Source: Salvelinus alpinus (Eukaryota > Chordata > Actinopteri > Salmoniformes > Salmonidae). From it: DNA of 64,000 nt. The notes below the pieces were generated by a model. It was not told the DNA's origin. It saw only the letters and a list, made by a program, of their open reading frames with translations, and did no database searches. Position 1 is the stretch's first letter, and each line of letters opens with the position of its first letter. The DNA lies in assembly GCF_045679555.1 (NCBI RefSeq), contig NC_092091.1, positions 77,702,902 to 77,766,901 of the forward strand. The letters run 5' to 3'. The translations under genes and the position numbers were made by a program. This document shows, one piece after another, positions 24,181 through 59,092 of the stretch.

Positions 24181-24450
24181 TACTTCCTGTTCCAGACCAG
24201 CTGACTGTTGACTCAGTGGACACCACATCAGCTGCTGTTAGCTGGAACCAGCCACCAGGATTGGACCAAACCCAACATCATTACCAGATCTCCTACTACT
24301 GTCCAGGGACAGAACCATACATCACTACCACATATTCACACAGCATCACTCTCTCTGACCTGAAACCTGCCACTCAGTACTCTGTTACTGTCTGCACTGT
24401 GCTGGAGAATGGAAAGCAAAGTCAACTGGTGTCAACAACCCTCATCACAA
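24181..24450 (+). CDS. FN3 exon 1
   Basis: The acceptor TTTTCCCTTAG and donor AA|GTAAGTT bound an open 270-bp exon in phase 1 at both ends. It encodes one fibronectin type III domain of 90 residues. The first-strand pattern DQLTVDSV, the conserved Trp of strand B (AVSW), the Tyr of strand C (YQISY) and the LxPxTxYSVTV motif near the end are visible. FN3 domains are binding modules of about 90-100 residues and this length fits. The exon ends in A rather than the G of most other copies, so the junction codon changes. It is closest to exon 6 (both carry the LKPATQYSV form), with near-identical introns. Confidence 0.9.
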
Positions 24451-24661
24451 GTAAGTTCTCTACTTAAAAATTATGTATAGTGTCAAAGTCAAAAAAATAA
24501 AACTAATGTAAATGAACTAATAAGTAACAATTTATTGTGACTACATACCCATAATGCATTCTCTAATATTACTATGGGTCCCACATATGCATTCAGTGTA
24601 AAGTCCAATCTATTTTTCTATTCATAAGGCGTTTATAGCTAGTGGTAATTAACTGTGCAGT
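24451..24661. other. Intron tail of duplicated block
   Basis: Nearly identical to 45194-45404. At about 24661 the similarity to that copy stops and retroposon-derived sequence begins, marking a junction. Confidence 0.7.
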
Positions 24662-25441
24662 TAAAAGGAGCAAAAGGATCGTGGATTGTGGCTTGTGAAA
24701 TGATCGACACATGAAGTGAACAGCTTTGATTTTAGGAGCAGGTACCTTGTAAAGATGGCCTTGTGTCACGTGTTTGCAGACGGAAGGAATAGGTTATTGA
24801 AGAGTCTTTGAATGGAAAATGTTGTAACTGTGGTGGGGATTTCCCAATTCCCTGAGTGCCCTGTTGGGGTGAAAGAGGTTGAGGTGTCAGGAATCAGGGC
24901 TCTACAGCAAATCTCCTATGTGAAGGAGGTGAAGCGAGTTGAATGGGCAAGAGGCCACAGTTCTGAAGAAGATATGGCGGAGGATGCACCACAACCAGTT
25001 GCAAATGTTATGAATCAAGTGATCTGGATACACGTATTGTGATAAAGGTGGATTTTGTATCATTTATAGCCACAGTTATTAAATGTACTGCACAAGTATC
25101 CAAGAAGCCCAAAAAGCTGGACATTATTTTATCTGCAGCCTAGAACTGTTTGGGCCTCCAAGACTTAACTGCAGAAGCACTGCAAGGACTACTGTCGCCA
25201 GGAAATGTCCCTCCATCACAGGATCCTTCTGAGCCTGTGTAGAGACATGATTCAAATAGAAAAGCAGGCTGATTTAGTTTAATTAACATTTCCTTACTGA
25301 TAGTGTGATGGATTTCTTCAATTCTTTTTTTACCCCGCATTTTTTCCTTTTAAGATTCTTATTATCTATAAGTACAGTAGGTGGCGGAATGCACATTTAA
25401 TTGTTGCAAACGCCATTACACCAAAGATGAAGACTAAGAAG
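24662..25441 (+). mobile_element. Gag-like retroposon remnant, copy 1 (truncated)
   Basis: It matches 49798-50807 but starts late and lacks about 240 bp (equivalent of roughly 49886-50128). It retains the second zinc-knuckle-like half of a LINE ORF1-type protein (24812-25042, CPVGVKEVEVSGIR) and the 3' tail 'cagtaggtggcggaatgc' before the Tc1 sequence. Confidence 0.65.
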
Positions 25442-26462
25442 TGCATGTCAGAGCAAAAACCAAGCCACGTGGTCGAAGGAATTGCCCGTAGAGCTCAGAG
25501 ACAGGATTGTGTCGAGGCACAGATCTGGGGAAGGGTACCAAAACATTTCTGCAACATTGAAGGTCTGGAAAAAACAATGGCCTCCATTGTTCTTAAATGC
25601 AAGAAGTTTGAACATCCAAGGCTCTTCCTAGAGCTGGCCACCCGGCCAAACTGAGCAATCGGGGGAGAAGGGCTTTGGTCAGGGAGGTGATCAAGAACAC
25701 GATGGTAACTCTTACAGACCTCTAGAGTTCCTCTGTGGAGATGGGCGAACCTTCCAGAAGGACAACCATCTCTGCAGCACTGCACCAATCAGGCCTTTAT
25801 GGTAGAGTGGCCAGACAGAAGCCACTCCGTAGTAAAAGGCAAATGACAGCCCACTTGGAGTTTGCCAACAGGCACCTAAAGGACTTAGACCATGAGAAAC
25901 AAGATTCTCTGGTCTGATGAAACCAAGATTGAACTTTTTGGCCTGAATGCCAAGCGTCCCGTCCGGAGGAAACCTGGCACCATCCCTACGGTGAAGCATG
26001 GTGGTGGTAGTATTCTGCTGTGGGGATGTTTTTCTGCAACAGGGACTGGGAGACTAGTCAGGATCGAGGGAAAGATGAACGGAGCAAATTACAGAGATCC
26101 TTGATGAAAACCTGCTCCAGAGCGCTCAGGACCTCAGACTGGGGCAAAGGTTCACCTTCCAACAAGACAACGACCCTAAGCACACTGCCAATACAATGCT
26201 GGAGTGGCTTAGGGACAAGTCTCTGAATGTCCTTGAGTGGCCCAGCCAGAGCCCGGACTTGAACCCGATCGATCATAGCTGGAGAGACCTGAAAATAGCT
26301 TTGCAGCGATGCTCCTCATCCAACCTGACAGAGCTTGAGAGGATCTGCAGAGAATAATGGGAGTAACTCCCCAAATACAGGTGTGCCAAGCTTGTAGCGT
26401 CATACCCAAGAAGACTGGAATCTGTAATCTCTGTCAAACGTGCTTCACGTAAATGGTCTGAA
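25442..26462 (+). mobile_element. Tc1 transposon copy 2 (both ends lost)
   Basis: It begins inside the element at GTGCATGTCAGAGCAAAAAC and stops at AAATGGTCTGAATTATTATA, so both terminal repeats are missing. The transposase frame keeps the WSDETK and DLNPI segments but has frameshifts and stops. In one segment HLW is replaced by HSW. Its duplicate at 50808-52042 shows what was lost at the right end (about 650 bp). Confidence 0.85.
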
Positions 26463-27086
26463 TTATTATAACACGTTCATGAAATGATTATAGATGTGTA
26501 ATGAATGTGTTATGGATATATAGTGCAAATGAATTGTTACTAACTAATCATAATGGATGTGTCAGCATGGCATGTAAAGGTTCAGTATCTTCCCTGATTC
26601 TAAATATATGATGGTGAATTCCTCATCTCATAATGCAGTTATGTATTAAAATCAATGAAAGTTTAGAATAATATCTGAATTAATTCTTGCTTCTATTCCT
26701 GTGATTCATTCTGTCAATGATTTTCCTCTGCTTGCTTTAACTTTATCAGTAGTACAGTGTTAAACACTTGTTATTGTGGAGAGGAATTATAATAAACATT
26801 ATTTTCATTTAAATATTTTTCATTTTTGGGCGGTGTGGCCGCAACAATTTAGCAAAGGTGCAGCACCGTTAATAAATTAATATAGCGGACACTCTTCATT
26901 TTTGTTAAATTACAAATCCAACTAACGTTGTGTGACTTCTGTTTTTAGCATATTTACTCCCATATCAAAAGTACTTGCAAACTGGCCTATTCTACTTTTC
27001 ACCTACTATTGTTATTTTCCTCCTGTATTATGCACTGTATTTCTGGAGTTAAACTATAGCGTTGACAATAATGTATTTTCCCTTAG
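26463..27086. other. Intron preceding FN3 exon 2
   Basis: Matches 52512-53135 closely and ends in the standard acceptor TTTTCCCTTAG. Blocks like 'gatgtgtcagcatggcatg' occur after every FN3 exon and mark the ancestral duplication unit. Confidence 0.7.
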
Positions 27087-27356
27087 TACTTCCTGCTCCA
27101 GACCAGCTGACTGTTGACTCAGTGAACACCACATCAGCTGCTGTTAGCTGGAACCAGCCACCAGGATTGAACCAAACCCAACATCATTACCAGATCTCTT
27201 ACCACTGTCCAGGGACAGAACCACACATCACTACCACATCTTCACACAGCATCACTCTGCCTGACCTGCAATGTGGTACTCAGTACTCTGTCACTGTCTG
27301 CACTGTGCTGGAAAATGGAAAGCAAAGTCAACTGGGGTCAACAACCCTCACCACAG
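27087..27356 (+). CDS. FN3 exon 2
   Basis: 270 bp, phase 1 at both ends, CACAG|GTAAG donor. One complete FN3 domain with the same Trp, Tyr and TxYSVTV landmarks as exon 1. The strand E-F turn reads LQCGTQYSV, which is shared only with exon 4 and introduces an extra Cys. It lies 2.6 kb after exon 1. Its frame is intact although its duplicate partner (53136) is broken. Confidence 0.92.
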
Positions 27357-28377
27357 GTAAGGGATTACATTACTTAAGTATTATCTCTGGTGTCAAAGTT
27401 TGTTTAAACCTTAACTAGTTATCAAAAGGACTCTATAAACAATTCATAGTAGATGTGTCAGTATGGAATGTAAAGGTACAGTATCTTCCCTGATGAGAAA
27501 TATAAGATGGTGAATTCCCCAGATCTCATCATGCAGAATGGTAAGGAAATTAATAAACGTTTTATTGATATCAGAATTCATGCTTGCTTCCCATTAGTGT
27601 CAGTCATTATGTCAAGGAGTTGATCTGCCTCTGCTTGCTTTAACTTTATCAGTAGTATAGTGTAAAACACTTATTTGTGTGGAGAGGTGTAACGGCGGGT
27701 GAGTGTAATGAATGAGGAGTCAACTGCAGAGAGCGAAATGTACGGGAAAAACACTTTAATGTCCTTCGGAAAAAGTATCAGGTCCAAACATGGGTGAATG
27801 CCCAAAACACTGTCGCAACACAAACCCCAAAACCTTGTTACCAACACTGGACAGCGAAACCCAAAAACAGACACGTAACATCACCACACGTAACAACTAA
27901 TATCGTACAAACACTAGCGGGCAAAACGAACCTAAATAGCACCCATCCCAAAACCCCAACAAGGAACAGGTGAAAACAATTAGACAGACATAAACGAAAA
28001 GGAAAAAGGGATCGGTGGCAGCTAGTAGACCGGCGACAACGACCGCCGAGCGCCACCCGAACAGGAAGGGGTGCCACCTTCGGTAGTATTCGTGACAAGA
28101 GGATTTATAATCCCAGCATACATGTTTTACTATTTAAATGTTTTGCTCTAATTTAGCAGAGGTGCAGTGCCATCAGATATGAATGTAGTGAAACCTTTCA
28201 TTTTTGTTACATTACAAATCCAACTTCTGTTGTGTGACTTCTGTTTTTAGCTTATTTCTTCCCACATCAAAAGGAATTACAATCTGGCCTTTACTATTTT
28301 ACTACTACTCTTCTTCTTGTCTGTGATATATTACTGGAGTTAAACTATTGCACTAATAATAATGTATTTTCCCTTAG
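27357..28377. other. Intron between FN3 exons 2 and 3 with LTR insertion
   Basis: Apart from the 410-bp insertion listed next, it is the ordinary duplicated intron. It shares blocks with the sequence downstream of exons 3, 5 and 7 and upstream of exon 8. Confidence 0.65.
27688..28097 (-). mobile_element. Solo LTR with 5-bp target duplication
   Basis: The 410-bp insert has TG...CA termini (plus strand TGTAACGGC to TTCGTGACA) and is flanked by AGAGG at 27683-27687 and 28098-28102. The related intron near 53464 lacks it, giving an empty site. Read on the minus strand, an ATTAAA signal lies near the 3' part ('gacattaaagtgttttt'). These features fit a solo long terminal repeat of an LTR retroelement; the internal region is absent. 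Confidence 0.8.
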
Positions 28378-28647
28378 TACTTCCTGCTCCAGACCAGCTG
28401 ACTGTTGACTCAGTGGACACCACATCAGCTGCTGTTAGTTGGAGCCAGCCACCAGGATTGAACCAAACCCAACATCATTACCAGATCTCCTACCGCTGTC
28501 CAGGGACAAAACCACACATTACTACCACATCTTCACCCAGCATCACTCTCTCTGACCTGGAACCTGCTACTGAATACTCAGTAACTGTCTGCACTGTGAT
28601 GGAAAATGGAAAGAAAAGTCAACTGGGGTCAACAACCCTCACCACAG
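28378..28647 (+). CDS. FN3 exon 3
   Basis: 270 bp, phase 1 at both ends, acceptor TTTTCCCTTAG and donor CACAG|GTAAG. A complete FN3 domain with LEPATEYSVTV at the end and a Ser-Pro-Ser segment (TTSSPSIT) shared only with exon 8. It is followed by the 11-kb intron that contains the SINE and the giant 28-bp minisatellite. Introns on both sides match those of exon 8. Confidence 0.92.
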
Positions 28648-29911
28648 GTAAGGAAGTACCCAACTTAAGTATTATTTCTGGTGTCAAAGTTAATTAAGCT
28701 TTGACTAGTTATCAAAATGATTAATGTAAATGAAGTAATCATAATGAATGTATCAGCATGGCATGTAAAGGTCCAGTATCTTCCCTGATGAGAAATATAT
28801 GATGGTGAATTCCCCAGATCTCATCATGCAGTTTGGTGGTATAATTAATAAACATTTTAGTAAACTCTGAATTCATGCCTGATTCTATTCCTGTGAGTCA
28901 TTATATCAAGGAGGTGATCTGCCTCTGCTTGCTTTAACTTTATCAGTAGTACAGTGTTAAACACTAGTTATTGTGGAGAGGATTTAAAATCACACCATTC
29001 TTTTCATTTATATTTCTACAAAAATGGTGTGTGGGGGGGGCGGGGGGGTTGTGGTGACAACAATTTAGAACCTGTTCACCACTGTTACTAAATGTATACA
29101 GCTAAAATTCTTAATTTCTTATTACATTCAGGACGGATCAAAATGTACAGAACGGTTACCTTGAGGAAAATGGGGTCATGCTTTTTCAGTTAAGGGAAGG
29201 GTTTAGGTTTTAGTTGCTTGTTAGGCTATATACTGTATCAATGTGTGGCTGATGCTGCCCCTCATCTCTGATTCTCCGCTGGGCTTGCAATATCAAGTGC
29301 GCCTATAGGCTATTTAGTGTGGTCTCAATCAAATGATCAATAGCCTATAGGCTATAAGTTACAAAGTGCATGCTCAGAGAAGCAGAGAGCAAAGTTATAT
29401 TTCTAAGATAGCTGCTGGGATGGTGTAAATAAAACTAGGCTGCACTAGCCTATGTTCTGTTCAGTTTGAGAAGGAGAGCGCAAATATGAGGAGGATCAAA
29501 GGTCAACTTTGATAGCTTGCAACTACTATTATAGATGTATTTTTTTAACAATATGTTTCTGTCCCATGATGTATTTATCAGAGTTACTGATCTCCCAATA
29601 AGCCAGATTCGAGTAACTTACATTTTGGTGTTGAAACTTGATGCACTAGCCGCTGCCAATTCAATCTGAAGTGGACAGCTCATGGTGCTGAAAGTAGACA
29701 AATTCCAGTAGGAATAATTCCTTTCAACGTCTTCATTTTAATTAGACTTTACTAACAACAAGAGGGCTTTGTATTGGTGCCTATTTCTTCCTATTTAAGA
29801 AATAATAGGTAGGCCTACCTGTTTGACAGACTAATTTAGGCTATAGGCTGCTATATCCATATATTTGTCGTTCAATTCCACCACCCACCATGCACTCTTT
29901 AAATGATCTAC
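28648..29911. other. Intron after FN3 exon 3
   Basis: The first 330 bp are the duplicated intron. A G-run lies at 29032-29048. From about 29100 the sequence is unique within the window and contains no recognised exon. Confidence 0.5.
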
Positions 29912-29914
29912 CTC

Positions 29915-39654: not shown

Positions 39655-39924
39655 TACTTCCTGTTCCAGACCAGCTGACTGTTGACTCAGTGGACACCAC
39701 ATCAGCTGCTGTTAGCTGGAACCAGCCACCAGGATTGTACCAAACCCAACATCATTACCAGATCTCTTACCAGTGTCCAGGGACAGAACCACACATCACT
39801 ACCACATCTTCACACAGCATCACTCTCTCTGACCTGCAATGTGGTACTCAGTACTCTGTCACTGTCTGCACTGTGCTGGAAAATGGAAAGCAAAGTCAAC
39901 TGACGTCAACAACCCTCACCACAG
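39655..39924 (+). CDS. FN3 exon 4
   Basis: 270 bp, phase 1 at both ends, donor CACAG|GTAAG, acceptor CCCCTAG (one base different from its sisters). A complete FN3 domain carrying the LQCGTQYSV form seen in exon 2; one position differs in that a Tyr replaces Asp/Asn after the PPGL segment. It sits between the giant minisatellite and a second intronic minisatellite. Confidence 0.92.
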
Positions 39925-42372: not shown

Positions 42373-42642
42373 TACTTCCTGTTCCAGACCAGCTGACTGT
42401 TGACTGGGTAAGCATCATATCAGCTGCTGTTAGCTGGAACCAGCCACCAGGATTGGACCAAACCCAACATCATTACCAGATCTCCTACCACTGTCCAGGG
42501 ACAGAACCACACATCACTACCACATCTTCACACAGCATCACTCTCTCTGACCTGCAAGGTGGTACTCAGTACTCTGTCACTGTCTGCACTGTGCTGGAAA
42601 ATGGAAAGCAAAGTCAACTGGTGTCAACAACCCTCACCACAG
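42373..42642 (+). CDS. FN3 exon 5
   Basis: 270 bp, phase 1 at both ends, donor CACAG|GTAAAA (weaker than the GTAAGG of its sisters). A complete FN3 domain with the LQGGTQYSV turn, which is shared with exon 8. The strand A-B region differs: the usual acidic Asp-Thr-Thr is replaced by Ser-Ile-Ile. The DNA change creates TGG|GTAAGC at 42408, a good cryptic donor inside the exon. Using it would leave 35 bp and shift the frame. Confidence 0.9.
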
Positions 42643-44650: not shown

Positions 44651-44923
44651 TATTTAGTTGTGAAAACACATTAATATTAATGTTCCCAAACAGATTCCAC
44701 TTGGCTTTGGATATTGTGGCTTATATGGACTACTGTCCGTTCCTTCCTGCTCTTTATAGGCCAGCAGTCAGGTAGGCTACTGCCAACAACATGTCATCAA
44801 TTCAACTGCAAATAATGCATTCAAGCCTAGTTGGCCTACCATTCTATGAGGGAAAAAATATAACTAATGGGAATATTAAATAACTTTAAACTGTAACATT
44901 AACAATACTATATTTTCCCTTAG

Positions 44924-45193
44924 TACTTCCTGCTCCACACCAGCTGACTGTTGACTCAGTGGACACCACATCAGCTGCTGTTAGCTGGAGCCAGCCACCA
45001 GGATTGGACCAAACCCAACATCATTACCAGATCTCCTACTACTGTCCAGGGACAGAACCATACATCACTACCACGTCTTCACACAGCATGACTTTCTCTG
45101 ACCTGAAACCTGCCACTCAGTACTCTGTTATTGTCTGCACTGTGCTGGAAAATGGAAAGCAAAGTCAACTGGTGTCAAGAACCCTCACCACAA
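44924..45193 (+). CDS. FN3 exon 6
   Basis: 270 bp, phase 1 at both ends, donor CACAA|GTAAGTT as in exon 1. A complete FN3 domain with the LKPATQYSV form. It differs from exon 1 by a few substitutions, such as His for Asp/Gln near the start and Arg for Thr near the end. It is the block-duplication partner of exon 1; the shared sequence starts in the Tc1 upstream and runs to about 45404. Confidence 0.9.
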
Positions 45194-47347
45194 GTAAGTT
45201 CTCTACTTAAAAATGATGTATAGTGTCAAAGTCAAAAAAATAGAACTAATGTAAATGAACTAATGAGTAACAATTTACTTTGACTACATACCCATAATGC
45301 ATTCTCTAATATTACTTTGGGTCCCACATATGCATTCAGTGTAAAGTCCAATCTATTTTTCTATTCTTAAGGCGTTTATAGCTAGTGGTAATTAACTGTG
45401 CAGTTTGCCACTCTGATTTATAACACCAACATTACATGTATATGTATGAATTCTATTTAGTCAATGTAATGTCATTTCTATTTCCCCATTCATAAAGCCT
45501 TTATAAACATGCTTAACTGATGGACACAACACAGAATGTTAAATTGAAACTTTAACATTTTATAAACATTTTCCAGATGTAGTACAGAAAACAATTGCTG
45601 AGGACTTCACCTAAGAATTTCTTCTATTGACATTTTTCAGTTGGACTTTTCTTGAATAGATTTAAGAAATATTCATATTCAAACCATTCAAATTAATTTC
45701 CCATATGGTAATTTTCCATGAAGAAAAAAACCCTAAAGTCTAAGGTTCTGGGCTGGGCTTCTACTAAGCTAACATATGGAATTGTTTTAAGATGGTCATA
45801 CCAAGGGTCATTTAGCTCCTTGATTTAGAATTGTAGGACCCCTGTAGGCAGATGTAGAAATAACATCGGACCAACACTTTACATGTTGCGTTTATGTTTT
45901 CGTTCAGTGCAGTAATCGCATCAACTACATTTTCTGTCAACTTTTAAAAACAGACATTTCTATCACTTTCCCAAAAACTTATACTAAACCAAAAATATAA
46001 ATGTAACATGTAAAGTGTTGGTCTCATTTTTAATGAGCTGAAATAAAAGATCCCAGAAATGTCCACAACATAAAGACCCGACACAAATCTTGGATTGCTA
46101 CCCAAGCCGGTTGGTCATTCGTTCTATCGGTTCGGTAGCCAGAGCACGACCCAGTTATTCAGTCTTTTTGTTCTGTATCTATGGACGCGACCCAGTCGTT
46201 CGTTCCAAATGTTCCATTGCCATGCTGGTTGGCAATGTTCTTATCCCTTGCTTGCTAGCTAGCCAACTACGGCTAACTTAGTAACATCAAACCGTGCAGC
46301 CACAATATCAACAGTAGCTGCATTTGCATAAATTTAAGCTCTTTTCTAGTGACCTTTATTTAGATAGATCCATAACAATGAGCGAATGAGGTGCGATTTC
46401 GCCTGGCATAGAAAATGTGCTCTCTCGCCAGGACACTGTTGTTTAGAGGATCTAGCCAACAAACACAGCTAACACAATAACTTCAAACTGAAGCTGGAAA
46501 GACTGCAAACTAGATGCACTTCATTTCGTTTTACCTTTTTTCAAATGACATTTCTTTGTATATATCCATAAAAATGATGCCAGTTGATTCATTATTTTGA
46601 CTGGCTGAGAACCGCTGCTTGCTTGTCTGTCTCATCCTGACTACAGACTTGTCATTACTATGGGACAGCTGGAGATCGAATTTGAATATTGAAACAATGT
46701 TGCAAATGTCGGAGACAGACAGCAAGGTTTATACAAATATCTGCTGTTGAAAACAAAATGTTAGTCTAAAAGAAATGTGAGATAATGTCTAGACGCTTTT
46801 ATAGTGGAGATTAAGTTTATGAATTGCGCAGTCAGATGGAACAGAGTAAATAGGCATTTTAATGTCATAGATTTAGCCGGTGGTAACTTGTGGAATAGAC
46901 ACTGACTGAAATGCTGTTTTAACAAATCAGAATACAGGATTAGAACTACCCGTTGTGTAATGCCCATTCATCCATTGGCAACATTAATTCAGTGAGGAAA
47001 GAGATGCATAAGCGCCAGGGTTCCATAGCCCGATGACACGTTTTGTCTTGGCCTCTTAAATCACTAACAGCTGTAAAAAAATATAAAAAAAACGACAACT
47101 GGTAAACAGCCTCTTAATATGTTTATATTCGTGATTTAAAAAATTCTGACAACTGAGCAATGTAAAATATTAATATTTAGGAAAAGTCAGGGAAGGAGCA
47201 GGACGTTGCTATTTTTTAAAAATATTGTTTTACGTACAAAATCCTACGTCAGAGTCCGTTGGCCTATGGCGTAAAATGAGTAGCGTTTCAAGTAATAATA
47301 ATATAAAATATGAGAAAGATTTAAAGTGGGACATTGGCTTTCGCAAG
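45194..47347. other. Intron, largely unique, with a short inverted repeat
   Basis: 45194-45404 is duplicated from 24451-24661. Beyond that the text is unique in the window except for 45870-46022, whose ends are 26-bp inverted repeats with two mismatches (ACCAACACTTTACATGTT and its complement) and resemble a small DNA transposon. No exon was seen. Confidence 0.5.
45870..46022. mobile_element. Short inverted-repeat element (MITE-like)
   Basis: 26-bp arms at 45870-45895 and 45997-46022 differ at two positions. The interior is about 100 bp and non-coding. Adjacent text ('gagctgaaataaaagatccc') is familiar from fish DNA transposons. Confidence 0.6.
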
Positions 47348-47908
47348 TGTTGATAAAACATTTACTGGAGACAGGAGATCAAGTTGAGACATAGGACGAG
47401 GTGGATATTGTATAATAAGGCAGTTTATTCACAGGTAAAGATATCTTAGAAATCGTGCAGCACGGCCCCGTTCTGTCTGACTCGTATGGAATCGTCGGAA
47501 AAGAGACCCCTAAACATATTGTGCTGATTATATATGCAATAAATGAAGTAGGTTGATCTTGTAGTCTGGCCTTCTGATTGGTCGATCTGGGTCGTGGGTA
47601 GTCCTGTTCGGGCCTGATGTCGACGTTCCATTGGCTCTTAACATAGTTCTTTGTCTTAGAGTCTCAACCTCGAGCAGAATGCATGTGCGTTCTGTTTTAG
47701 CAGGGGCCTGTTCATGGGGGAGGGGAGTGTGTGTGGGTCTGTGGTTATTATCATTAAGGGTACGAAGTGTGGGGGTATAGAGGGGGATGGGTGCATGTTG
47801 TGTCAAGTATAGCTTGTGTTGAGAAGTTGTTAAAACAAGTTGCCAGTATCTATTACAATTTCTTACACAAGTCACATTAACTATTTTAGTGAGTGAAACT
47901 TTCTAACA
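47348..47908 (-). mobile_element. Solo LTR candidate
   Basis: On the minus strand it would start TGTTAGAAAGTTTCAC and end TTTTATCAACA. It would contain a TATATATAATCAGC TATA-like string and an AATAAACTGCC polyadenylation signal in the right order for U3-R-U5. I could not find a matching target duplication, so boundaries are approximate. Confidence 0.45.
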
Positions 47909-48905
47909 CAGGGTGTTAACACTAGATAGCATTCCCCTCTTATTCACTAATAAATAGCTGTAGCTAGGAACTACAGTAGCTGGAACAATATAAACATGTT
48001 TTCTAACTAGGACAATAAACGTTACAAAATCGTTGTAAAATTCATGAAACATTTAGTTAACAGTTAACTATCTCACTATTTTAAGATTTACATTGTACTT
48101 TTGCACATTCGGAACCTTTAACAACAGGAAAAAATAAGAGAAAGGAACATGAGATTCTTTCCATTTTGGCTGCATGGGAGGATAGGGTGAGAGGTCAGTA
48201 AAATGTCACTTCCAGTTGACCTCTTGCTTCCACCAAAATCATCAAAAAACAAAAATGTAACATTTAGTTAACCTTTTTTGTTCACTATTTCATGACTGGC
48301 GTCGTACATTTGCACATTTAAAATAAGAAAAATTGTTAAGAAGGAAGTGATGTCATTAACCTGTCAGCTCTCCTCTGCAGTCAATATGAATGCAGCTGGT
48401 TCCTGCCTCATAATTCTTCCTGTTTTCAAAGGTTTGTAATGTGAAAAAATACAATGTAATAGTGAATTTTTAAAAACTAAATGTTTAATGAGTTTGATGA
48501 CGATTTTGTAACGTTTATTGACCGATTTGAAAAACATGTTGACATTGTGCCAGGGGCTTACCTAGCTGCTAGCTAACTAGCTACATCAGTGAATAAGATG
48601 GAAATGCTTGCTCCTTTACCACCCAGTGTTAATACATTTTACTCATTAAAATAGTTACTGCTATTAGTCTGAAATGGGGAATTGAATTTTAATGGTTTGA
48701 ATGGTCAAGAAAAGTTAAACTGAAAAATGTCAATAATAGCCAGGAGTCCTCAGCAATCTGGAAAACATAAATAAAATGTTCACATTTCCTTTAACATAGT
48801 GTGTACATCAGTTATGCATGTTTATAAATGCTTTAAGAATGGGAAAATAGAAATGACATTACATTGGCATATAATTCATACATACCAAGCTCTTCATGGT
48901 AATTA
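47909..48905. other. Intron sequence, nothing recognised
   Basis: AT-rich text without exon, RNA gene or mobile element that I recognise. Confidence 0.4.
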
Positions 48906-49287
48906 TGGTGCATTGGAAAGTATTCAGACCCCTTCACTTTTCCACATTTTGTTACGTTACTGCCTTATTCTAAAATGGATTAGATAGAAAATAACCATCA
49001 TCAATCAACACACAATACCCCATAATGACAAAGCAAAGGTTTCTAGACATTTTTGTAAATTTATAGAAATAAAAAAAACATAAATATCTTATTTACATAA
49101 GTATTCAGACCTTTTGCTATGAGACTAAACATTTAGCTCAGGTGCATCCTGTTTCCATTGATTGTCCTTGAGATGTTTCTACAACTTGATTGGAGTCCAC
49201 CTCTGATAAATTCAATTGATTGGGCATTATTTGGAAAAGCACACACCTGTCTATGTAAGGTCCCACAGTTGACAGTGCATGTCAGAG

Positions 49288-50807
49288 GTGGTGAGATGGC
49301 GGAAGCAGAAGTGTCATTTGAAGTTGAAAGCACATTGAGTACAGTTAGCGAGAACAGTGAAGTTCAAGAATGGAACAAAAAGGGCTAAAATTTATGTGGA
49401 AAATGAGTCTGATGAATCGTTGGAGTGCGTTCTTTGGATAAGAATGTTTATTTGGGAAACCCTTTTGAAGTCACGAGGACGTTGAAGAAGGCGTTGGGGA
49501 AAGTGGATGCAGTTAAAGTAACCAGGAGTGGTATGGTGTTGATATCGTGTAGTCATAGTGACCAGGAGTGGTATGGTGTTGATATTGTGTAGTCATAGTG
49601 ACCAGGAGTGGTATGGTGTTGATATTGTGTAGTCATAGTGACCAGGAGTGGTATGGTGTTGATATCGTGTAGTCATAGTGACCAGGAGTGGTATGGTGTT
49701 GATATCGTGTAGTCATAGTGACCAGGAGTGGTATGGTGTTGATATCGTGTAGTCATAGTAACCAGGAGTGGTATGGTGTTGATATCGTGTGTTTCTAAAG
49801 AGCAAAAGGATCGTGGATTGTGGCTAGTGAAAGTATCGACAGATGAAGTGAACAGCTTTGATTTTAGGAGCAGGTACCTTGTAAAAGATGTTATCTATGG
49901 TGTCCAGTTGGACATTGATAATCAATATCTTAGGTTGAAAACTCCAGGAGTAGTTAATGCACATCGCTTGACCCGTATGGAGAATGGGGAAAAGGAGCAG
50001 AGTTTATCTGTATTATTGATGTTTGATGAGTAATTACCACCCTATGTAAAGTTGGGATACGAAAGATACGCCATAAGAGCGTTTGTGCAAAACCCGATGC
50101 AATGCAGGAAGCGTAAAATGTTTGGCCATGTGTCACGTGTTTGCAGACGGAAGGAATAGGTTATTGAAGTGTCTTTGAATGTAAAATGTTGTAACTGTGG
50201 TGGGGATTTCCGAATTCCCTGACTGCCCTGTTGGGGTGAAAAAGGTTGAGGTGTCAGGAATCAGGGCTGTACAGCACATCTCCTATGTGAAGGAGGTGAA
50301 GCGAGTTGAAAGGGCAAGAGGCCACAGTTCTGAAGAAGATATGGCGGAGGATGCACCACAACCAGTTGCAAATGCTATGAATCAAGTGATCTGGATACAC
50401 TTATTGTGATAAAGGTGGATTTTGTATAATTTATAGCCACAGTTATTAAATGTACTGCACAAGTATCCAAGAAGCCCAAAAAGCTGGACATTATTTTATC
50501 TGCAGCCTAGAAATGTTTGGGCCTCCAAGACTTAACTGCAGAAGCACTGCAAGGACTACTGTCGCCAGGAAATGTCCCTCCATCACAGGATCCTTCTGAG
50601 CCTGTGTAGAGACCTGATTCAAATAGAAAAGCAGGCTGATTTAGTTGAATTAACATTTCCTTACTGATAGTGTGATGGATTTCTGAAATTACTTTTTTAC
50701 CCCGCATTTTTTCCTTTTAAGATTCTTATTATCTATAAGTACAGTAGGTGGCGGAATGCACATCGAATTGTTGCAAACGCCATTACACCAAAGATGAAGA
50801 CTAAGAA
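49288..50807 (+). mobile_element. Nested gag-like (LINE ORF1-type) retroposon with 13-bp target duplication
   Basis: The insert of 1,520 bp lies between two copies of GTGCATGTCAGAG (49275-49287 and 50808-50820). An ATG occurs 9 bp inside the left end. Frameshifted pieces encode a gag-like protein of the LINE ORF1 kind, with CRKRKMFGHVSRVCRRK and CCNCGGDF zinc-knuckle strings (about 50090-50220). It has no reverse transcriptase. The 3' end carries 'cagtaggtggcggaatgca', known from fish retroelements. It must have been moved by another element's machinery. Confidence 0.8.
49521..49798. repeat. 40-bp tandem repeat inside the gag-like frame, 7 copies
   Basis: The core ACCAGGAGTGGTATGGTGTT begins at 49521, 49561 and every 40 bp to 49761. 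It lies within the gag-like coding text, contains TAG, and its period is not a multiple of three, so its growth destroyed the frame. Confidence 0.95.
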
Positions 50808-52042
50808 GTGCATGTCAGAGCAAAAACCAAGCCATGTGGTCGAAGGAATTGTCCGTAGAGCTCAGAGACAGGATTGTGTCGAGGCACAGATCTGGGGAAG
50901 GTTACCAAAACATTTCTGCAACAATGAAGGTCTGGAAAAACACAGTGGCCTCCATCGTTCTTAAATGGAAGAAGGTTGAACATCCAAGGCTCTTCCTAGA
51001 GCTGGCCGCCCGGCCAAACTGAGCAATCGGGGGAGAAGGGCCTTGGTCAGGGAGGTGATCAAGAACCCGATGGTAACTCTTACAGACCTCTAGAGTTCCT
51101 CTGTTGAGATGGGAGAACATTCCAGAAGGACAACCATCTCTGCAGCACTGCACCAATCAGGCCTTTATGGTAGAGTGGCCAGACAGAAGCCACTCATCAG
51201 TAAAAGCCAAATGACAGCCCGCTTGGAGTTTGCCAACAGGCACCTAAAGGACTTAGACCATGAGAAATAAGATTCTCTGGTCTGATGAAACCAAGATTGA
51301 ACTTTTTGGCCTGAATGCCAAGCGTCACGTCCGGAGGAAACCTGGCACCATCCCTACGGTGAAGCTTGGTGGTGGTAGTATTCTGCTGTGGGGATGTTTT
51401 TCTGCAGCAGGGACTGGGAGACTAGTCAGGATCGAGGGAAAGATGAACGGAGCAAATTACAGAGAGATCCTTGATGAAAACCTGCTCCAGAGCGCTCAGG
51501 ACCTCAGACTGGGGCGAAGGTTCACCTTCCATCAGGACAACGACCCTAAGCACACTGCCAATACAATGCTGGAGTGGCTTAGGGACAAGTCTCTGAATGT
51601 CCTTGAGTGGCCCAGCCAGAGCCCGGACTTGAACCCGATCGAACATCTCTGGAGAGACCTTAAAATAGCTTTGCAGCGATGCTCCTCATCCAACCTGACA
51701 GAGCTTGAGAGGATCTGCAGAGAATAATGGGAGTAACTCCCCAAATACAGGTGTGCCAAGCTGGTAGTGTCATACCCAAGAAGACACGAGGCTGTAATCG
51801 CTGCCGAAGGTGCTTCAACAAAGTACTGAGTAAAGGGTCTGAATACTTATGGAAATGTGATATCAGTTTTTTATTTTGAATACATTTGCAAACATAAAAA
51901 AAACTGTTTTAGCTTTGTCATTATGGGGTGTTGTGTGTAGATTGATGAGGAAAAAACGATTTAATTAATTTTACAATAAGGCTGTAATGTAACAAAATGT
52001 GGAGAAAGTCAAGGGGTCTGAATATTTTCCGAATGCACTGTA

Positions 52043-53135
52043 GACATTTAATGTTGGTGTTATATATCAGAGTGGCAAACAGCACAGTTAATTACCACGA
52101 AGTGCTTAGCTGTAAATGTGCTTAGCTACAGTATAAATGGTTTATGAATGGGAAATTAGATTTGACTTAACCTTGACTGGATAGGATTAATGGGTTACGA
52201 AAGAGTTCTGTATGAGTCTCAACGACATGATGTGATCAGTCAAATTACCCTGAGGATTCACCCCTGTGGAGATCTTCATGTATCATTGACCTCAAGGAGA
52301 AGAATAAGAAGTTATATACCAGCTGGTGGGGGAAATGAGGCGGGTACAGGCTATATATATCAGCATAACCTGGTTTGGCCTTTTGGCATATTCACTAACA
52401 CTGGCATTCCAGAAGTACACTTTAGAGAACAGCCATAATGATGACACTATGCTGTCATTGTAATGATGCATCTATAAAGATACCTACATATGAGCTCCTA
52501 CATGACATGACCTGTTATAACACGTTCATGAAATGCTTATAGATGTGTAATGAATGTGTTATGGATATATAGTGCAAATGAATTGTTACTAACTAATCAT
52601 AATGGATGTGTCAGCATGGCATGTAAAGGTTCAGTATCTTCCCTGATTCTAAATATATGATGGTGAATTCCTCATCTCATAATGCTGTGTTGAAATCAAT
52701 GAAAGTTTATTATAATATCTGAATTCATTCTTGCTTCTATTCCTGTGATTCATTCTGTCAATGATCTTCCTCTGCTTGCTTTAACTTTATCAGTAGTACA
52801 GTGTTAAACACTTGTTATTGTGGAGAGGAATTATAATAAACATTATTTTAATTTATATATTTTTCATTTTTGTGTTGCGGGGTGTGGATGCAACAGTTTA
52901 GCAGAGGTGCAGCACCGTTAATAAATTAATATAGCGGAAACTCTTCATTTTTGTTAAATTACAAATCCAACTAATGTTGTGTGACTTCTGTTTTTAGCAT
53001 ATTTCTTCCCATATCAAAAGTACTTGCAAGCTGGCCTATTCTACTTTTCACCTACTATTGTTATTTTCCTCCTGTATTATGCACTGTATTTCTGGGGTTA
53101 AACTGTAACATTAACAATAATGTATTTTCCCTTAG
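52043..53135. other. Intron before FN3 exon fragment 7
   Basis: 52043-52511 is absent from the partner block near 26462; 52512-53135 matches 26463-27086. It ends with acceptor TTTTCCCTTAG. Confidence 0.65.
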
Positions 53136-53234
53136 TACTTCCTGCTCCAGACCAGCTGACTGTTGACTCAGTGGACACCACATCAGCTGCTGTTAGCTGG
53201 AGCCAGCCACCAGGATTGGACCAAACCCAACATC
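53136..53234 (+). pseudogene. FN3 exon 7, 3' part deleted
   Basis: A normal acceptor and the first 99 bp of an FN3 exon (to CCAAACCCAACATC) are present. The text then jumps into sequence that normally lies in the following intron ('gatgtgtcagtatgggatg'), so the second half of the domain and its donor are gone. Reading on, the frame meets TGA near 53283. It is the duplication partner of exon 2. It is probably skipped in splicing; the GGTACAG near 53261 is only a weak alternative donor. Confidence 0.9.
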
Positions 53235-53749
53235 CTAATGGATGTGTCAGTATGGGATGTAAAGGTACAGTATCTTCACTATGAGAAATATAAGATGGTG
53301 AATTCCACAGACCTCATCATGCAGAATGGTAATGAAATTAATAAACGTTTTAATGATATCAGAATTCATGCTTGCTTCCCATTAGTGTCAGTCATTATGT
53401 CAAGGAGTTGATCTGCCTCTGCTTGTTTTAACTTTATCAGTAGTACAGTGTTAAACACTTGTTATTGTGGAGAGATTTATAATCCCAGCATACATGTTTT
53501 ACTATTTAAATGTTTTGCTCTAATTTAGCAGAGGTGCAGTGCCATCAGATATGAATGTAGTGAAACCTTTCATTTTTGTTTCATTACAAATCCAACTTCT
53601 GTTGTGTGACTTCTGTTTTTAGCTTATTTCTTCCCACATCAAAAGGAATTACAATCTGGCCTTTACTATTTTACTACTACTCTTCTTCTTGTCTGTGATA
53701 TATTACTGGAGTTAAACTGTAGCCTTGACAATAATGCATTTTCCCTTAG
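53235..53749. other. Intron between exon fragment 7 and FN3 exon 8
   Basis: Duplicate of the intron before exon 3 but without the solo LTR, so it serves as the empty site. It ends with acceptor TTTTCCCTTAG. Confidence 0.7.
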
Positions 53750-53911
53750 TACTTCCTCGCTGTCCAGGGACAGAACCACACATCACTACCACATCTTCAC
53801 CCAGCATCACTCTCTCTGACCTGCAAGGTGGTACTCAGTACTCTGTCACTGTCTGCACTGTGCTGGAAATTGGAACGCAAAGTCAACTGGTGTCAACAAC
53901 CCTCACCACAG
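53750..53911 (+). CDS. FN3 exon 8, shortened in frame
   Basis: 162 bp with normal acceptor and donor, phase 1 at both ends. Relative to its 270-bp sisters it lacks 108 bp (36 residues). The deletion follows the first eight bases and removes strands A to C, including the conserved Trp and the YQISY Tyr. The remaining part keeps the CPGTEP to TQYSVTVCTV half. The frame stays open, so it can be spliced but cannot make a complete FN3 fold. It mixes features of exon 3 (flanking introns, SPSIT) and exon 5 (LQGGTQYSV). Confidence 0.82.
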
Positions 53912-54425
53912 GTAAGGAAGTACCCAACTTAAGTATTATTTCTGGTGTCAAAGTTAATTAAGCTTTGACTAGTTAGTAAGAAAGTACCCTACTTAAGTAT
54001 TGTCTGTGAAAAATCTGGTTGAATCAACTTTATTTAAACGTAAATTGTCGACGTATTGTGACATAGAATCTATGTGGAAAATACATTGGACTTGAAAAAA
54101 GTAATCAACAAACTGTTTTTTTGAGGGGAGTAATTCTACTCCAGGATCATGTCATCATGGTAACCAAATTTCAACATAGAAAAACCTTTTTGTAAAATAT
54201 GTTGGATTTGTACCTTCAAAACAATGTCAGCTCTTCAATGTAATATCCACCTTCAGAATAAACAATCAGCTGGGAAGCACCTCCTACCTGAGAGTTGATC
54301 TACCCTTTTGTCTCCCAGGGTTTTAACCCAAGTAATCAACAAACTGTTGTTTTGACTGGAATACATTTTTGATGGTGAATTTCCTTGGATCTTTTCTTTT
54401 TCCTGATCTTCCTTTCTATTTACAG
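53912..54425. other. Last intron before the GTPase exon
   Basis: The first 75 bp are the FN3-type intron; the rest is unique. It ends with the strong acceptor CTTTCTATTTACAG. Confidence 0.7.
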
Positions 54426-57400
54426 AACCCAGTCTCAAGGAGCTGTTGTCCAAGACTGGACTAGAAGATCATTATGAAAACAAGCTGACGTTAAGTACTG
54501 TCCTTGAGATAAATGATGATACTACATCAGATGAACCTCTTACCACTATGCAGTCACTTCCAGGGGCCTTCCTTAAGAAATTAATGATGGCAAATGTGAA
54601 TGCTAGGAGTGTGAAATGTCTGAACACTGACCAGGAGGTTTCCTATTGTGGTGTAGACAACCTGAACACTGACACTGATAACAGCAATGTCATTAATCCA
54701 CTGGACCTGATAACTGCCCTGTTTCTGTGTTCAGATGGTTTCCTGCAGCAGGAGATGGTCCAGAAAATGTCCATGTGTCAGTTTGCTGTTCCTCTTCTGC
54801 TGCCCAACTGTGACACAAAACAAAGCACTTTGATGCTGTGGGCCTTGAGGGACATAGTGAGGAAATTTAGACCCTCTTCCCAAATGGCTACAAATGCTTT
54901 CGTGGAGGAGAGAATTGTACTCTCTGATATTCCTATGGTGTCCTTTGTTAGGCTAGGAGAGAGCAGCTTGTCCAAGTCTCAGATTTTGAACAAGTTGCTT
55001 AGTAACCCTCAACAGTACCATGACACTTTTGTTCATCATGATATGGAATGTGGCGATGTCCCTCGTCAAATCTCAGATGGTCTGGTTGAAATCAGCTGGT
55101 ACTTTCCATGTGGGAACAGAAACATAGACATGTTCACTAAGCCTGTATCTGTTGCCAATCACAGAGGAGACATCAGGTCCTTTGAAACACAGTTCTCCTT
55201 TCTGTGTCAAACATCAGCTGCAGTTTACATTTTCATTGATGATTTTGAGTCAGACCTCAAGGTTTTGGAAGGAAAAATCACAAAAGCAGAGATATTTCTG
55301 GTTGTCAACTCTCAGAATAAAACATTCAGGGTGGACACATTGAAGAAAATGATCACAAACTACAGTATCAACCCAACAAATGTGATTGTGAAGAAGAAGC
55401 AGAATGATGCAGAATTTGTCAAAATCCTGCAGTCATCTGTGGGTGACATCATCGAAAAAAGTAAAAACAGATTGACAATTGAAAACATGGCTGAAGTAGC
55501 TCATCAGTTTGGGATTCTGGTTGATGAAGACGGTGAGTGTCAGAGTGCCAGGAATATGGCAGATGAAATCACCAGGAACTTCAAAGACACAATGATATTC
55601 AAAGATGAACAGCTACCCTTACAAGGGCAAATCTGGAAAGAGCTTTCCCAGTTAGAAAAAGAGATGTGTAGACTGAGAAAAGCAGGGAGTCAAGATATTG
55701 AACACTACAAGAGCTCTCTGAAGAGAAAGGAGGAAGAGCTGAGAAAGAAACAATATACATTTGACATGTCAGATGCAATGGCAAGCTTCATTTCAGGATT
55801 GTCAGGATCAGGAGCGGAGCGTTCCTATTTCCTCAAATGGATGCGGATAAATCTGGACAATCTGTCACGGCAGAACCTGTCTGATTTGAGGGACCGGTAC
55901 AAAGATCTTTGCCAAAATTCTCCTGAGAAAAAAGATGACATTAAAGATTTGGATAAGCAATTATCTGACTGTTCCTTAGGCCTTGAACACTTCCTGCGTG
56001 AGTTGGGCCAGTTATATGAAGCTGCCTGCTCCCTCCCTGAAGACAGTCCTCAAAGGAAACAGATGGAGAATCTCCCTGGATTGTGTGCTCAGATGCTGTT
56101 GGATGGTTTCCCCATTGAGCTTGTGGATGGAGATGCATCAAATATCCCTCTGAAATGGATATCAGCTGTACTGACTCAGCTTCATACTCTTGTCCAATCC
56201 AACAGCAAGATCCGGGTTGTCACAGTTTTAGGTGTACAAAGCACAGGGAAGTCCACTCTCCTCAACACCATGTTTGGAGTCCAGTTTGCTGTCAGCAGTG
56301 GAAGATGCACCAGAGGGGCCTTCATGCTACTGATTAAAGTCAACAAAGACCTCAAGGAGGAGCTGAAATGTGACTTCATCATGGTGATTGACACAGAGGG
56401 GTTGAAATCACCAGAGTTGGCTCAACTAGATGACAGCTATGAACATGACAATGAACTGGCCACACTGGTGATAGGACTCAGTGATGTCACTATCATCAAC
56501 ATGTCCATGGAGAACTCCACAGAGATGAAAGACATTCTACAGATTGTTGTTCATGCTTTTATCAGGATGAAGGAAGTGGGGAAGAAGCCAGTATGTCATT
56601 TTGTGCACCAGAATGTGTCAGACATGTCTGCTCATGACAACAACATGAGGGACAGGAAGAAGATGTTGGAACAGTTGAATCAAATGACCCTGGCAGCAGC
56701 CAGAATGGAGAAGAAGGACAATATCACCAAGTTCACTGATGTGATGGACTATGATCCAGACACAAGCAGCTGCTACATCCCAGGACTGTGGCATGGGACT
56801 CCCCCTATGGCTCCAGTCAATGCTGGATACAGTGAGGCTGTGTACAGCTTCAAGAAGACCTTGATGAAAGATTTCAGAAATTGCCAGAGTAATGATGACA
56901 TGACACATTTCCTGAAGTGGACACAAAGTTTGTGGGAGTCTGTTAAATTTGAGAAATTCATCTTCAGTTTCAGAAACAGCTTGGTTGCAGATGCATACTC
57001 CAGATTATGCTCTGAGTACAATGTTTGGGAATGGACCTTCCAGAAGGAGATGTATAAATGGATGGTGAGTGCTGAAAACAAAATATCCAATTTTGTCATG
57101 ACAGATCAACATCTCCAGAGGTCCATAAGAGATGTGCTACAAGACTTGATGATAGAAGCATCTGGGAAACTGTCAGAGGGAGAAAAGAAAATCCAAGACA
57201 ATCTGGTAAAATACTTTGAAAAGCAAGATGGACATGTCAATCTGGTGGAAAAATACAAGGAGGACTTTGTGTCTAGCGCCAAAACACTGAGACGAGAGAC
57301 AGAAAACACAGTGAGGAACAAACTGCAAGGAGCTGTTGAAATCAAAGAGGGAATGACAGAACTGAACAACATCAAGAGTTCTCAGGCAAATACAATGGAA

Positions 57401-59092
57401 AAGAAGGTTCTGACTCTGCTTCAGAAATGTAGACAGAAAAAATCTGTTCTATCAGATATGGAACTCAGTGAAGAGTTTGAAAACATGTGGAAGGAAACTC
57501 TTTCTGAGATACGCTTCAAAGGACTCCCAAGAAGAGATGTGGCTCAGGATGCCTTCTTTATGTTAAATGGAAATCTATCAACAAGGGGTGGCCACGTTAA
57601 TAGTATGGTGGTTGGAAACAACCTGGTGGAATGTGGTAAAAAAGAATTTGTTGTGAAAACGGGGGGTTTAGGGAAGAGACTTGAGGGCTTTGTTATGCAC
57701 TTGGACATCAACCATTACAGGAATAAACTACAAGAGTTGTGTGATGACATCATAACACAGTGTCATTTGTTTATAACACAGAAGGTGGAAAGCAAAACAG
57801 ATTACCATGATACTTACATCAAAGAGCTGCTGAACAATATTGATGAAACATTGCAACAACACAAGAATGTTGAAGTCAGTGATGAATGTGAGGTTTCTCT
57901 CAAACAACACATCTGTGGCAGAGCAGCAAGACAGTTCCAGAAGATGCATAATGATTTCATCTCACTCAATGACCCAAGGAAGTGTCTGGAACTGTCTAAG
58001 AACAAGTACCTTACTGAGTTCAAACACATATTTCACAACCAAGATCAGTGCCAAAAGAAAGCTGAGGAGTTCTCTAAGCTCTTACAGACAGCTGTACAGG
58101 ACTATGTGACCAAAATGATTGGTCCTGATGTAGTTGATGAAGTGAAGACAGGTAAAGGGTCAGAGGATTACAGCACCCGAAAGGCTTTCCAGTTCTCCGT
58201 TTTGAAACAACTGACTGAAGGAAAATATGAGAAATATAAAGAGTACATTAACTATTATGAAAAGTTTGTGAAGAACTGGCTGTTTGACCAGATTGTCCAA
58301 CAACTGTCAAAGGACCGCAGTCTGGAGAAATTGGAGAAGAAACATCTTTCAGAGATAGTCAAGATGATCACTGACACAATCTCTAACATCAGGAAAACAA
58401 CTGGCACAACAAATGTAAATGATGTCAAGACATTCATTCAGAACATCTGCAGAGCTCTTGAAGAGAAGCTGGTCCTCAAGGATGCTCTGGATTCCATCTT
58501 GATTCTGAACACTTCTGACACAAAACAGTTTGCTGTCTACCTCACAGAGTTTGTGAGAGAAATGGAGCAGTCACTAGCTGTTACGTACAACCATCAAAGA
58601 GATATTGAAGAGAGACTCAAATCTCTGCCATTCAAGCCTCAGGACAAGATGTTCACCAATTTGTTTGGCTGTGGCAAGCAATGTCCTTTCTGCGGTGTAC
58701 CCTGTGAAGCAGGAGGGAAGGACCATGCCCAACACTTTACATCAATTCATCGTCCACAAGGTCTAAAAAGTGTAACGTTCAGACCTACAAATAAGTTATT
58801 AACTAACATATGTTCCTCTGATGTAACCAGTAATTTATTATTCATCCACCCCCTGGTGACGGGAGAGAATCCTCACCCCTACAAGGACTACCAGAAATAT
58901 TACCCTGACTGGATCATAACTGGAGATCCCAGCATTAAGGCTTCAGACTACTGGAAGTATGTGATGACCACATTCAATGAGAGAATTGCTACAGAGATGA
59001 ATGCACTTCCTGCTGATATCCCAGATGACTGGAAGACATTAACACATGGTGACGCATTGAAGAGCTTGAAAGAGGCTTTCAACATGAAATAA
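54426..59092 (+). CDS. gvin1-like: VLIG-type large GTPase, terminal exon (GVIN1/URGCP family)
   Basis: One exon of 4,667 bp follows a strong acceptor and begins in phase 1, as FN3 splicing requires. It encodes about 1,554 residues; positions below count from the TTG codon at 54446. An N-terminal conserved block (MSMCQFAVPLLLP, about 110-122) is typical of URGCP and VLIG proteins. The G domain has the P-loop GVQSTGKS at 596-603, switch II DTEG at 649-652 and the family-typical HQNVSD at 721-726 where a classical NKxD would be. A long helical, Lys/Glu-rich region follows. Near the C-terminus, Cys1409, 1413, 1416, 1420 with His1427, 1430, 1435 form a probable metal site. The family is interferon-inducible, large and cytosolic/nuclear in mammals (about 2,400 residues); the exact role is unclear. 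The intact frame argues for function. Confidence 0.93.

What the first reader, a model, noticed from the sequence alone, without database searches (positions are those of the whole stretch)
24181..59092. FN3 array spliced in phase to a VLIG-type large GTPase
Six intact 270-bp FN3 exons all begin and end in phase 1, and the GTPase exon also starts in phase 1, so any number of FN3 exons can be included without shifting the frame. Mammalian GVIN1/URGCP proteins, as I know them, lack FN3 domains. A variable FN3 front end on an interferon-type GTPase would be a modular sensor or effector design. The fusion is inferred from splice strings and phase; its novelty is not established.
Basis: partly seen in the sequence, partly recalled or inferred. 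Interest (0 to 1): 0.85.

Follow-up and report, generated by a model that had tools for sequence, protein, structure and literature searches.

The report
Fish FN3-fronted giant immune GTPase genes
In this fish genome, genes for a giant interferon-type GTPase sit behind strings of interchangeable fibronectin-type binding modules, and the most complete relatives also carry TRIM-like zinc fingers and short repeats in front, which suggests a family of build-it-from-parts immune proteins that is still unproven at the RNA level.

Summary
Six intact 270-bp FN3 exons (phase 1-1) and two half-exon remnants lie before one 4.67-kb URGCP/VLIG GTPase exon that starts at a phase-1 acceptor. The window is C6:77.70-77.77 Mb of a 2.37-Gb genome, so the fusion could be tested by comparison. 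Of 111 FN3 matches found, 102 lie on C6 at 76.86-79.36 Mb among 15 GTPase genes; 6 lie beside GTPase copies on C31 and C11. The phase-1 GTPase acceptor is kept in 19 of 20 other copies. FN3 pairs also precede three distant C31/C11 copies, with introns of about 100 bp. Two near-identical complete 5' ends show a longer chain, all in phase: 30-aa repeats, double B-box, linker, FN3 alpha, beta, gamma(n), GTPase. This window's copy has no B-box, repeat or alpha exon in the DNA read, and its last FN3 exon encodes half a domain. So the architecture is well supported; this copy's transcript is not shown. Sensor or coat function is inference from human GVIN1. Ten literature searches showed no report of FN3-VLIG. 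New variant of a known kind.

The parts
24181..24450 (+). FN3 exon (gamma type), 270 bp, phase 1-1
   Evidence: AF2 model
27087..27356 (+). FN3 exon (gamma type), 270 bp, phase 1-1
28378..28647 (+). FN3 exon (gamma type), 270 bp, phase 1-1
39655..39924 (+). FN3 exon (gamma type), 270 bp, phase 1-1; acceptor TTTTCCCCTAG
42373..42642 (+). FN3 exon (gamma type), 270 bp, phase 1-1; donor GTAAAA
44924..45193 (+). FN3 exon (gamma type), 270 bp, phase 1-1; duplicate of 24181-24450 (96% DNA)
53136..53234 (+). 5' half of an FN3 exon; the matching part is 99 bp and has no normal donor (a possible cryptic donor after 53264, read by eye, would give an in-phase 129-bp exon)
53750..53911 (+). Truncated FN3 exon, 162 bp, phase 1-1 with intact splice sites; lacks the first half of the domain
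54426..59092 (+). Single large terminal exon: URGCP domain, URGCP/VLIG GTPase domain (P-loop GVQSTGKS, DTEG) and C-terminal region, stop included
46062..46961 (+). Relic about 84% identical to the intron between the two repeat exons of complete genes (L029/L030); no repeat exon found in it
50123..53975 (+). Duplicated copy of 24756-28711 with deletions; source of the two half exons

Best explanation
This is one unit of a fish multigene family in which FN3 exons are spliced in phase onto a single-exon URGCP/VLIG (GVIN1-type) giant GTPase. The most complete genes of the family read: 30-aa repeats (of the size described in fish NLRs), a double B-box exon like that of TRIM proteins, a short linker exon, FN3 alpha, FN3 beta, a variable number of FN3 gamma, then the GTPase exon. 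Most likely mechanism: an interferon-inducible cytosolic protein. The B-box and FN3 front end binds and clusters on a target, and the GTPase part polymerises on it, as human GVIN1 coats bacteria. Gain and loss of FN3 exons by duplication changes reach or specificity without breaking the frame. Shown: the modules, their order, strand, phases and paralogue conservation. Inferred: splicing in this copy, expression, location, binding, coat formation. This window's copy shows no B-box or alpha start and looks like a derived, 5'-reduced unit.
For: FN3 matches are concentrated at GTPase loci: 102 of 111 on C6 76.86-79.36 Mb, 5 on C31 (one of them beside a broken GTPase copy), 1 on C11, 3 elsewhere (150 of 222 candidates scored). 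13 of 15 C6 GTPases have a same-strand FN3 within 60 kb upstream, and 11 of 15 have a same-strand B-box upstream with no other GTPase between. The first GTPase met downstream is on the FN3's strand for 80 of 99 FN3 hits, cluster-strand shuffle p 0.0064. FN3 exons with phase-1 acceptor and donor: 33 of 35 full-length ones in held DNA. Phase-1 GTPase acceptor at the same place in 19 of 20 other copies. Chain phases 2-2, 2-2, 2-0, 0-1, then 1-1 repeated, then 1. FN3-FN3-GTPase with introns of about 100 bp at one C11 and two C31 loci. The FN3 tree splits {alpha, B} from {beta, A, gamma} (96/92), so two FN3 probably precede the C6 vs C31/C11 split, where GTPase dS is saturated in 15 of 16 pairs and 3.0 in the other. 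FN3 gamma exons are stop-free (17 of 17; joint chance 0.0004) and more alike than their flanks in 5 of 6 window pairs. GTPase dN/dS 0.14-0.35 among 4 C6 copies. Human GVIN1 coat: PMC11974893 (abstract, passages, section 9). In one salmon cell line VLIG-1 had the highest fold increase of the antiviral genes after type I IFN: PMC4337061 (passages).
Against: No transcript was available. No repeat or B-box exon was found in the window or in the 29 kb held upstream, and alpha and beta queries met only the gamma exons; the genome searches show none between 77.656 and 77.727 Mb either (capped candidate lists; C6:77656477-77673901 was not read). The FN3 exon next to the GTPase is half a domain. Two of 15 C6 GTPases have no same-strand FN3 within 60 kb, and only 9 of 20 other copies have FN3 in the 10 kb held upstream. 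19 of 99 FN3 hits meet a GTPase on the wrong strand first, and 3 more meet none. One such array is followed, in the part read, by a C-type lectin-like gene, not a GTPase. The complete 5' chain with FN3 was read only at two loci that are 94-98% alike. FN3 gamma amino-acid change is near the neutral proportion (142 of 190 changes nonsynonymous, neutral mean 0.719), which fits diversifying selection or weak constraint equally.
Confidence: 0.72

Rival explanations
1. The window's FN3 array is a passenger: a 5'-truncated segmental copy. The GTPase is made from a nearby promoter and an unseen short first exon, or from the internal Met at residue 41, without FN3.
For: No B-box, repeat or alpha start was found upstream in the DNA read or listed; the nearest FN3 exon is broken; gamma blocks have been copied around the cluster.
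Against: Six of six intact FN3 exons keep open frames and splice sites, and in 5 of 6 pairs compared the exons are more alike than their flanks. The GTPase exon opens at a splice acceptor, with the conserved LLSKTGLEDHYENKLTLS segment before the first in-frame Met.
Confidence: 0.25
2. Shared start, alternative last exons: one 5' module at C6:77.559 Mb (B-box, alpha) serves three tandem GTPase exons (77.654, 77.759 = window, 77.959) by phase-1 alternative splicing.
For: Between 77.559 and 77.962 Mb on + the searches list one B-box, two alpha exons and three GTPases; the three GTPase acceptors (window, L014, L024) are phase 1.
Against: Needs skipping of a terminal exon with its own stop over 100-400 kb; no RNA evidence. 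A second alpha lies after the window's GTPase, at 77.779 Mb.
Confidence: 0.1
3. The FN3 array belongs to a separate FN3-only or receptor-like gene; the GTPase behind it is a neighbour.
For: Arrays without a same-strand GTPase close behind exist: C6 78.006-78.198 Mb minus strand, next to a C-type lectin-like gene.
Against: Strand and order coupling; C11 and C31 copies with introns of about 100 bp. No terminal or transmembrane exon was recognised by eye in the frames listed for 45190-50200 and 51800-54500 (no transmembrane prediction was run, and 50200-51800 was not listed).
Confidence: 0.07

Closest known systems
GVIN1 / VLIG giant GTPases (human GVIN1, URGCP; Pfam URGCP and URGCP_GTPase)
   Same: Both Pfam URGCP domains at E below 1e-100 in one large exon; a VLIG gene is interferon-induced in salmon cells (PMC4337061, passages).
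   Different: Human GVIN1 is described as intronless and of 1,808 aa, with an N-terminal domain, linker and two LG domains; FN3 or B-box are not named in the section read (PMC11974893 section 9). Here FN3 exons, and in complete copies B-box and repeat exons, lie upstream.
Fish NLR-B30.2 (NLR-C) family
   Same: Clustered fish family with signs of exon shuffling and N-terminal repeats of about 30 aa (PMC4852459, passages); the repeat exons here are 90 and 114 bp.
   Different: NACHT, LRR and B30.2 were not searched for at these loci. That the repeats are homologous to those of NLRs is recalled, not tested; that paper calls its motif unique to these NLRs.
TRIM / finTRIM proteins
   Same: Double B-box exon, Pfam zf-B_box E 1e-14. 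Nearest matches outside the cluster have open frames of about 180-240 codons, as expected of TRIM first exons (recalled).
   Different: No RING noticed, none searched for by profile; FN3 and a giant GTPase follow. Cluster B-boxes form the top group (74-100% identity to the query, next 69%).
Tandem FN3 proteins (fibronectin, tenascins, DSCAM)
   Same: Canonical FN3 fold and phase 1-1 exons (that this is usual is recalled).
   Different: Placed before a GTPase that is presumed cytosolic.

Membership tests
URGCP/VLIG (GVIN1-type) giant GTPases | URGCP domain followed by URGCP-like GTPase domain above Pfam cut-offs | tested here: met
   384.3 bits (cut-off 27) and 675.4 bits (cut-off 55)
URGCP/VLIG (GVIN1-type) giant GTPases | Intact P-loop and DxEG motif | tested here: met
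   GVQSTGKS at residue 602, DTEG at 655
URGCP/VLIG (GVIN1-type) giant GTPases | Very large coding exon | tested here: met
   54426-59092, 1,554 codons plus stop
URGCP/VLIG (GVIN1-type) giant GTPases | Interferon induction of this gene | not testable with these tools
   print evidence is for VLIG genes not tied to this locus: PMC4337061, PMC5499884 (passages)
URGCP/VLIG (GVIN1-type) giant GTPases | Coat formation on bacteria | not testable with these tools
   reported for human GVIN1 (PMC11974893)
FN3 domain | fn3 profile match and FN3 fold | tested here: met
   profile run on 1 of the 6 intact window exons and 4 exons of other loci
FN3 domain | Truncated exon 53750-53911 is a whole FN3 domain | tested here: not met
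   no Pfam match for its 49 whole codons; half a domain by alignment
TRIM | RING, B-box, coiled coil in that order | tested here: inconclusive
   B-box met in L029; no RING or coiled-coil search run; no B-box in the window
Fish NLR-B30.2 | FISNA-NACHT | not tested
   no profile run over the loci for NACHT; the repeats resemble by size and recall only

The most novel reading that the evidence does not exclude
The 2.5-Mb cluster works as a combinatorial locus. A few 5' modules (repeats, B-box, first FN3) are spliced to variable sets of phase-1 FN3 exons and to alternative tandem GTPase terminal exons. Fish would then produce many target-specific coat-forming GTPases from one locus, and the window would be an internal cassette with no start of its own.
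Probability: 0.1. Interest if true: 0.9.

Novelty: new variant of a known kind. Interest (0 to 1): 0.62.

Why it matters
How giant VLIG-type GTPases choose their targets is largely unknown (for human GVIN1, O-antigen dependence and unnamed co-factors are reported; PMC11974893, PMC12133148). A fish family in which recognisable binding modules (FN3, B-box) stand in front of the GTPase, and vary in number between neighbouring genes, would give that question a natural experiment. It would also tie TRIM-type B-boxes, NLR-like repeats and VLIG GTPases together through exon shuffling in one cluster.

Tried and rejected
Relatives outside this genome: viral contigs and genome-contig scans with the GTPase exon gave no confirmed relative, so no other fish could be compared. 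PDB by sequence: five weak P-loop matches, E 0.5-0.68. AlphaFold2 of residues 1-884 of the GTPase exon failed (mean pLDDT 38.9) and supports no claim. Rfam: no match in the window at gathering scores.

First exon of this copy: repeat, B-box, C11/C31-type linker, alpha and beta queries were run on the window and on the 29 kb held upstream. Only the gamma exons answered the alpha and beta queries; the C6-type 43-bp linker gave chance-level matches only (E 0.49). The only trace is a relic of a 5' intron at 46062-46961. Rejected: that phase agreement alone is strong evidence (FN3 exons are normally 1-1, recalled). Not usable: the rainbow trout GVIN1 exon linked to cold-water disease (PMC8321248, passages); it codes 670 aa in one exon, unlike 90-aa FN3 exons, and I saw no sequence of it. 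A look for variable sites in FN3 gamma gave no clear binding-loop pattern.

Literature searches: among the papers listed I saw none that links FN3 with VLIG/GVIN/URGCP. Searches returned no paper; one search returned one, unrelated on its passages (PMC6047052); one search had 707 papers with two of five terms, 30 listed. The one listed with VLIG and 'fn3' (PMC5499884) has FN3 only as letters of an accession. PMC5894186 and PMC7959794 (passages) held nothing relevant. Database domain annotation was not searchable, so 'not in print' covers these ten searches of an open-access library only.

Correction to my own notes: note 2 says 11 of 20 copies have FN3 in the held upstream 10 kb; the right count is 9 of 20.
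Full report
What is there. On the + strand are six intact FN3 exons of 270 bp with phase-1 acceptor and donor, a 5' half exon at 53136, a truncated 162-bp exon at 53750-53911, and one large exon 54426-59092 coding URGCP and URGCP_GTPase domains. The GTPase exon starts at a phase-1 acceptor and is closed upstream by a stop at 54404. The two half exons come from a copied block: 50123-53975 corresponds to 24756-28711 with pieces lost. The truncated exon keeps phase 1-1 but encodes half an FN3 domain and has no Pfam match.

Comparison inside the genome. Pfam PF25683 gives 28 matches, of which 21 cover nearly the whole domain: 15 on C6 at 76.81-79.29 Mb, 3 on C31, and one each on C11, C19 and C36. 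The first FN3 exon as a protein query gives 111 matches (150 of 222 candidates scored, so a lower bound): 102 on C6 at 76.86-79.36 Mb, 5 on C31, 1 on C11, 2 on C3, 1 on C5. I fetched 10 kb upstream of the 20 other copies. FN3 exons are in that stretch for 9 of 20. On C11 and at two of three C31 loci an FN3 pair lies directly before the GTPase exon, with introns of about 100 bp. The GTPase exon opens with a phase-1 acceptor at the same place in 19 of 20; the exception is the divergent C36 copy.

Complete genes. At C6:79.265 and C6:76.916 Mb (94-98% alike, so not independent) the chain, measured at the first of them, is: two repeat exons (phase 2-2), a double B-box exon (2-0), a 43-bp linker (0-1), FN3 alpha, FN3 beta and FN3 gamma (all 1-1); the GTPase exon's acceptor is phase 1 (exon bounds read from splice signals, not RNA). 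The C11/C31 loci have a linker exon of their own with the same 0-1 phase, read by eye. B-box exon: Pfam zf-B_box E 1e-14; alpha, beta, A and B each match fn3. Genome-wide, the 13 closest B-box matches (74-100%) are 12 in the C6 cluster and 1 on C3; the next is 69%. All 7 repeat-exon matches listed are in the C6 cluster. Ordered by strand, 13 of 15 C6 GTPases have a same-strand FN3 within 60 kb upstream, and 11 of 15 have a B-box before them with no GTPase between; a twelfth has a split B-box.

Against this. 19 of 99 FN3 hits meet a GTPase of the other strand first (80 of 99 agree, cluster shuffle p 0.0064; 3 further hits have no GTPase after them). The largest misfit is the minus-strand array at 78.006-78.198 Mb; in the part read (L031) it is followed by a gene with a C-type lectin segment (Pfam Lectin_C E 1.2e-5 for one of two pieces tried). 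Two C6 GTPases have no same-strand FN3 within 60 kb, and the C19, C36 and third C31 copies have none in the 10 kb held. For the window's own unit no repeat or B-box exon was found in the window or in the held 29 kb upstream, and alpha and beta queries met only the gamma exons. The genome searches list none between 77.656 and 77.727 Mb; the repeat query left 30 of 180 candidates unscored, the alpha query 56 of 206 and the B-box query 259 of 409.

Evolution. In a tree of 34 FN3 domains, {alpha, B} and {beta, A, gamma} separate with support 96/92. Since alpha-beta is the C6 order and B-A the C11/C31 order, two FN3 domains probably preceded the split of those GTPase lineages. GTPase synonymous sites are saturated between them in 15 of 16 pairs (the other is 3.0), while dN/dS among the 4 C6 copies compared is 0.14-0.35. 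Gamma FN3 exons behave differently: dN/dS about 0.90 and 142 of 190 changes nonsynonymous, near the neutral 0.719; yet 17 of 17 are stop-free (joint chance 0.0004) and exons are 90-97% alike against 62-81% in flanks for 5 of 6 window pairs. The sixth pair (24183 and 44926) is a recent duplicate with equally alike flanks. The 17 were chosen as full-length, which biases the stop count. This fits frame conservation plus fast amino-acid change, as in a recognition surface, but relaxed constraint with gene conversion would look similar.

How it most likely works. Human GVIN1 is an IFN-gamma-inducible giant GTPase that coats cytosolic bacteria, depends on O-antigen and needs co-factors; its gene is described as intronless (PMC11974893, abstract, passages and section 9; PMC12133148, whole text). 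In one salmon cell line VLIG-1 had the highest fold increase of the antiviral genes after type I interferon (PMC4337061, passages). VLIG1 rose from day 2 in infected Atlantic salmon but was variable in some other challenges (PMC5499884, passages). Neither is tied to this locus. I infer that the fish proteins use B-box and FN3 modules to bind and cluster, and the GTPase part to build a coat. Fish NLR genes carry N-terminal repeats of about 30 aa and show exon shuffling (PMC4852459, passages), so mixing of parts between fish immune families has precedent.

Verdict. The fusion is well supported as a family architecture and unproven for this copy. It is a new variant of the VLIG/GVIN1 kind with a modular front end that I did not find described in ten searches of the open-access library; papers outside it, and database annotation, were not searched.

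Noticed in passing
window 30913-38839: A 28-bp minisatellite of 284 copies (7.9 kb) fills most of the intron between FN3 exons 28378 and 39655; the donor-like string AAAGGTAGT occurs 239 times in it.
   Followed up: partly
window 40212-41725, 61154-62868, 63042-64000, 6230-6825, 7365-7895, 11124-11616, 1-489: Further minisatellites with units of 56, 52, 14, 30, 45, 55 and 18 bp.
   Followed up: no
window 22762-23908, 25440-26443, 43694-44652, 50807-52042: Four related stretches, by eye Tc1-like transposon relics, between and before the FN3 exons.
   Followed up: no
window 46062-46961: About 84% identical to the intron between the two repeat exons of complete genes (L029/L030): a 5' gene relic inside the FN3 array.
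   Followed up: partly
G000 C6:78.006-78.198 Mb (minus); L031: FN3 array with alpha exons and no GTPase close behind it on its strand; in the part read it is followed by a gene with a C-type lectin segment.
   Followed up: partly
G000 C3:99.007-99.011 Mb: B-box, alpha and partial gamma matches with the same identities as those at C6:79.074-79.078 Mb, and no GTPase match on C3.
   Followed up: no
G000 C6:77.929-77.959 Mb; L024: Near-copy of the window's FN3 array and GTPase, with the exon that is truncated here (53750) nearly whole there, and two more FN3 exons closer to the GTPase.
   Followed up: partly
L020 (C6:78.65 Mb): GTPase unit with repeat exons and a split B-box but no FN3 found in the held 10 kb.
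   Followed up: no
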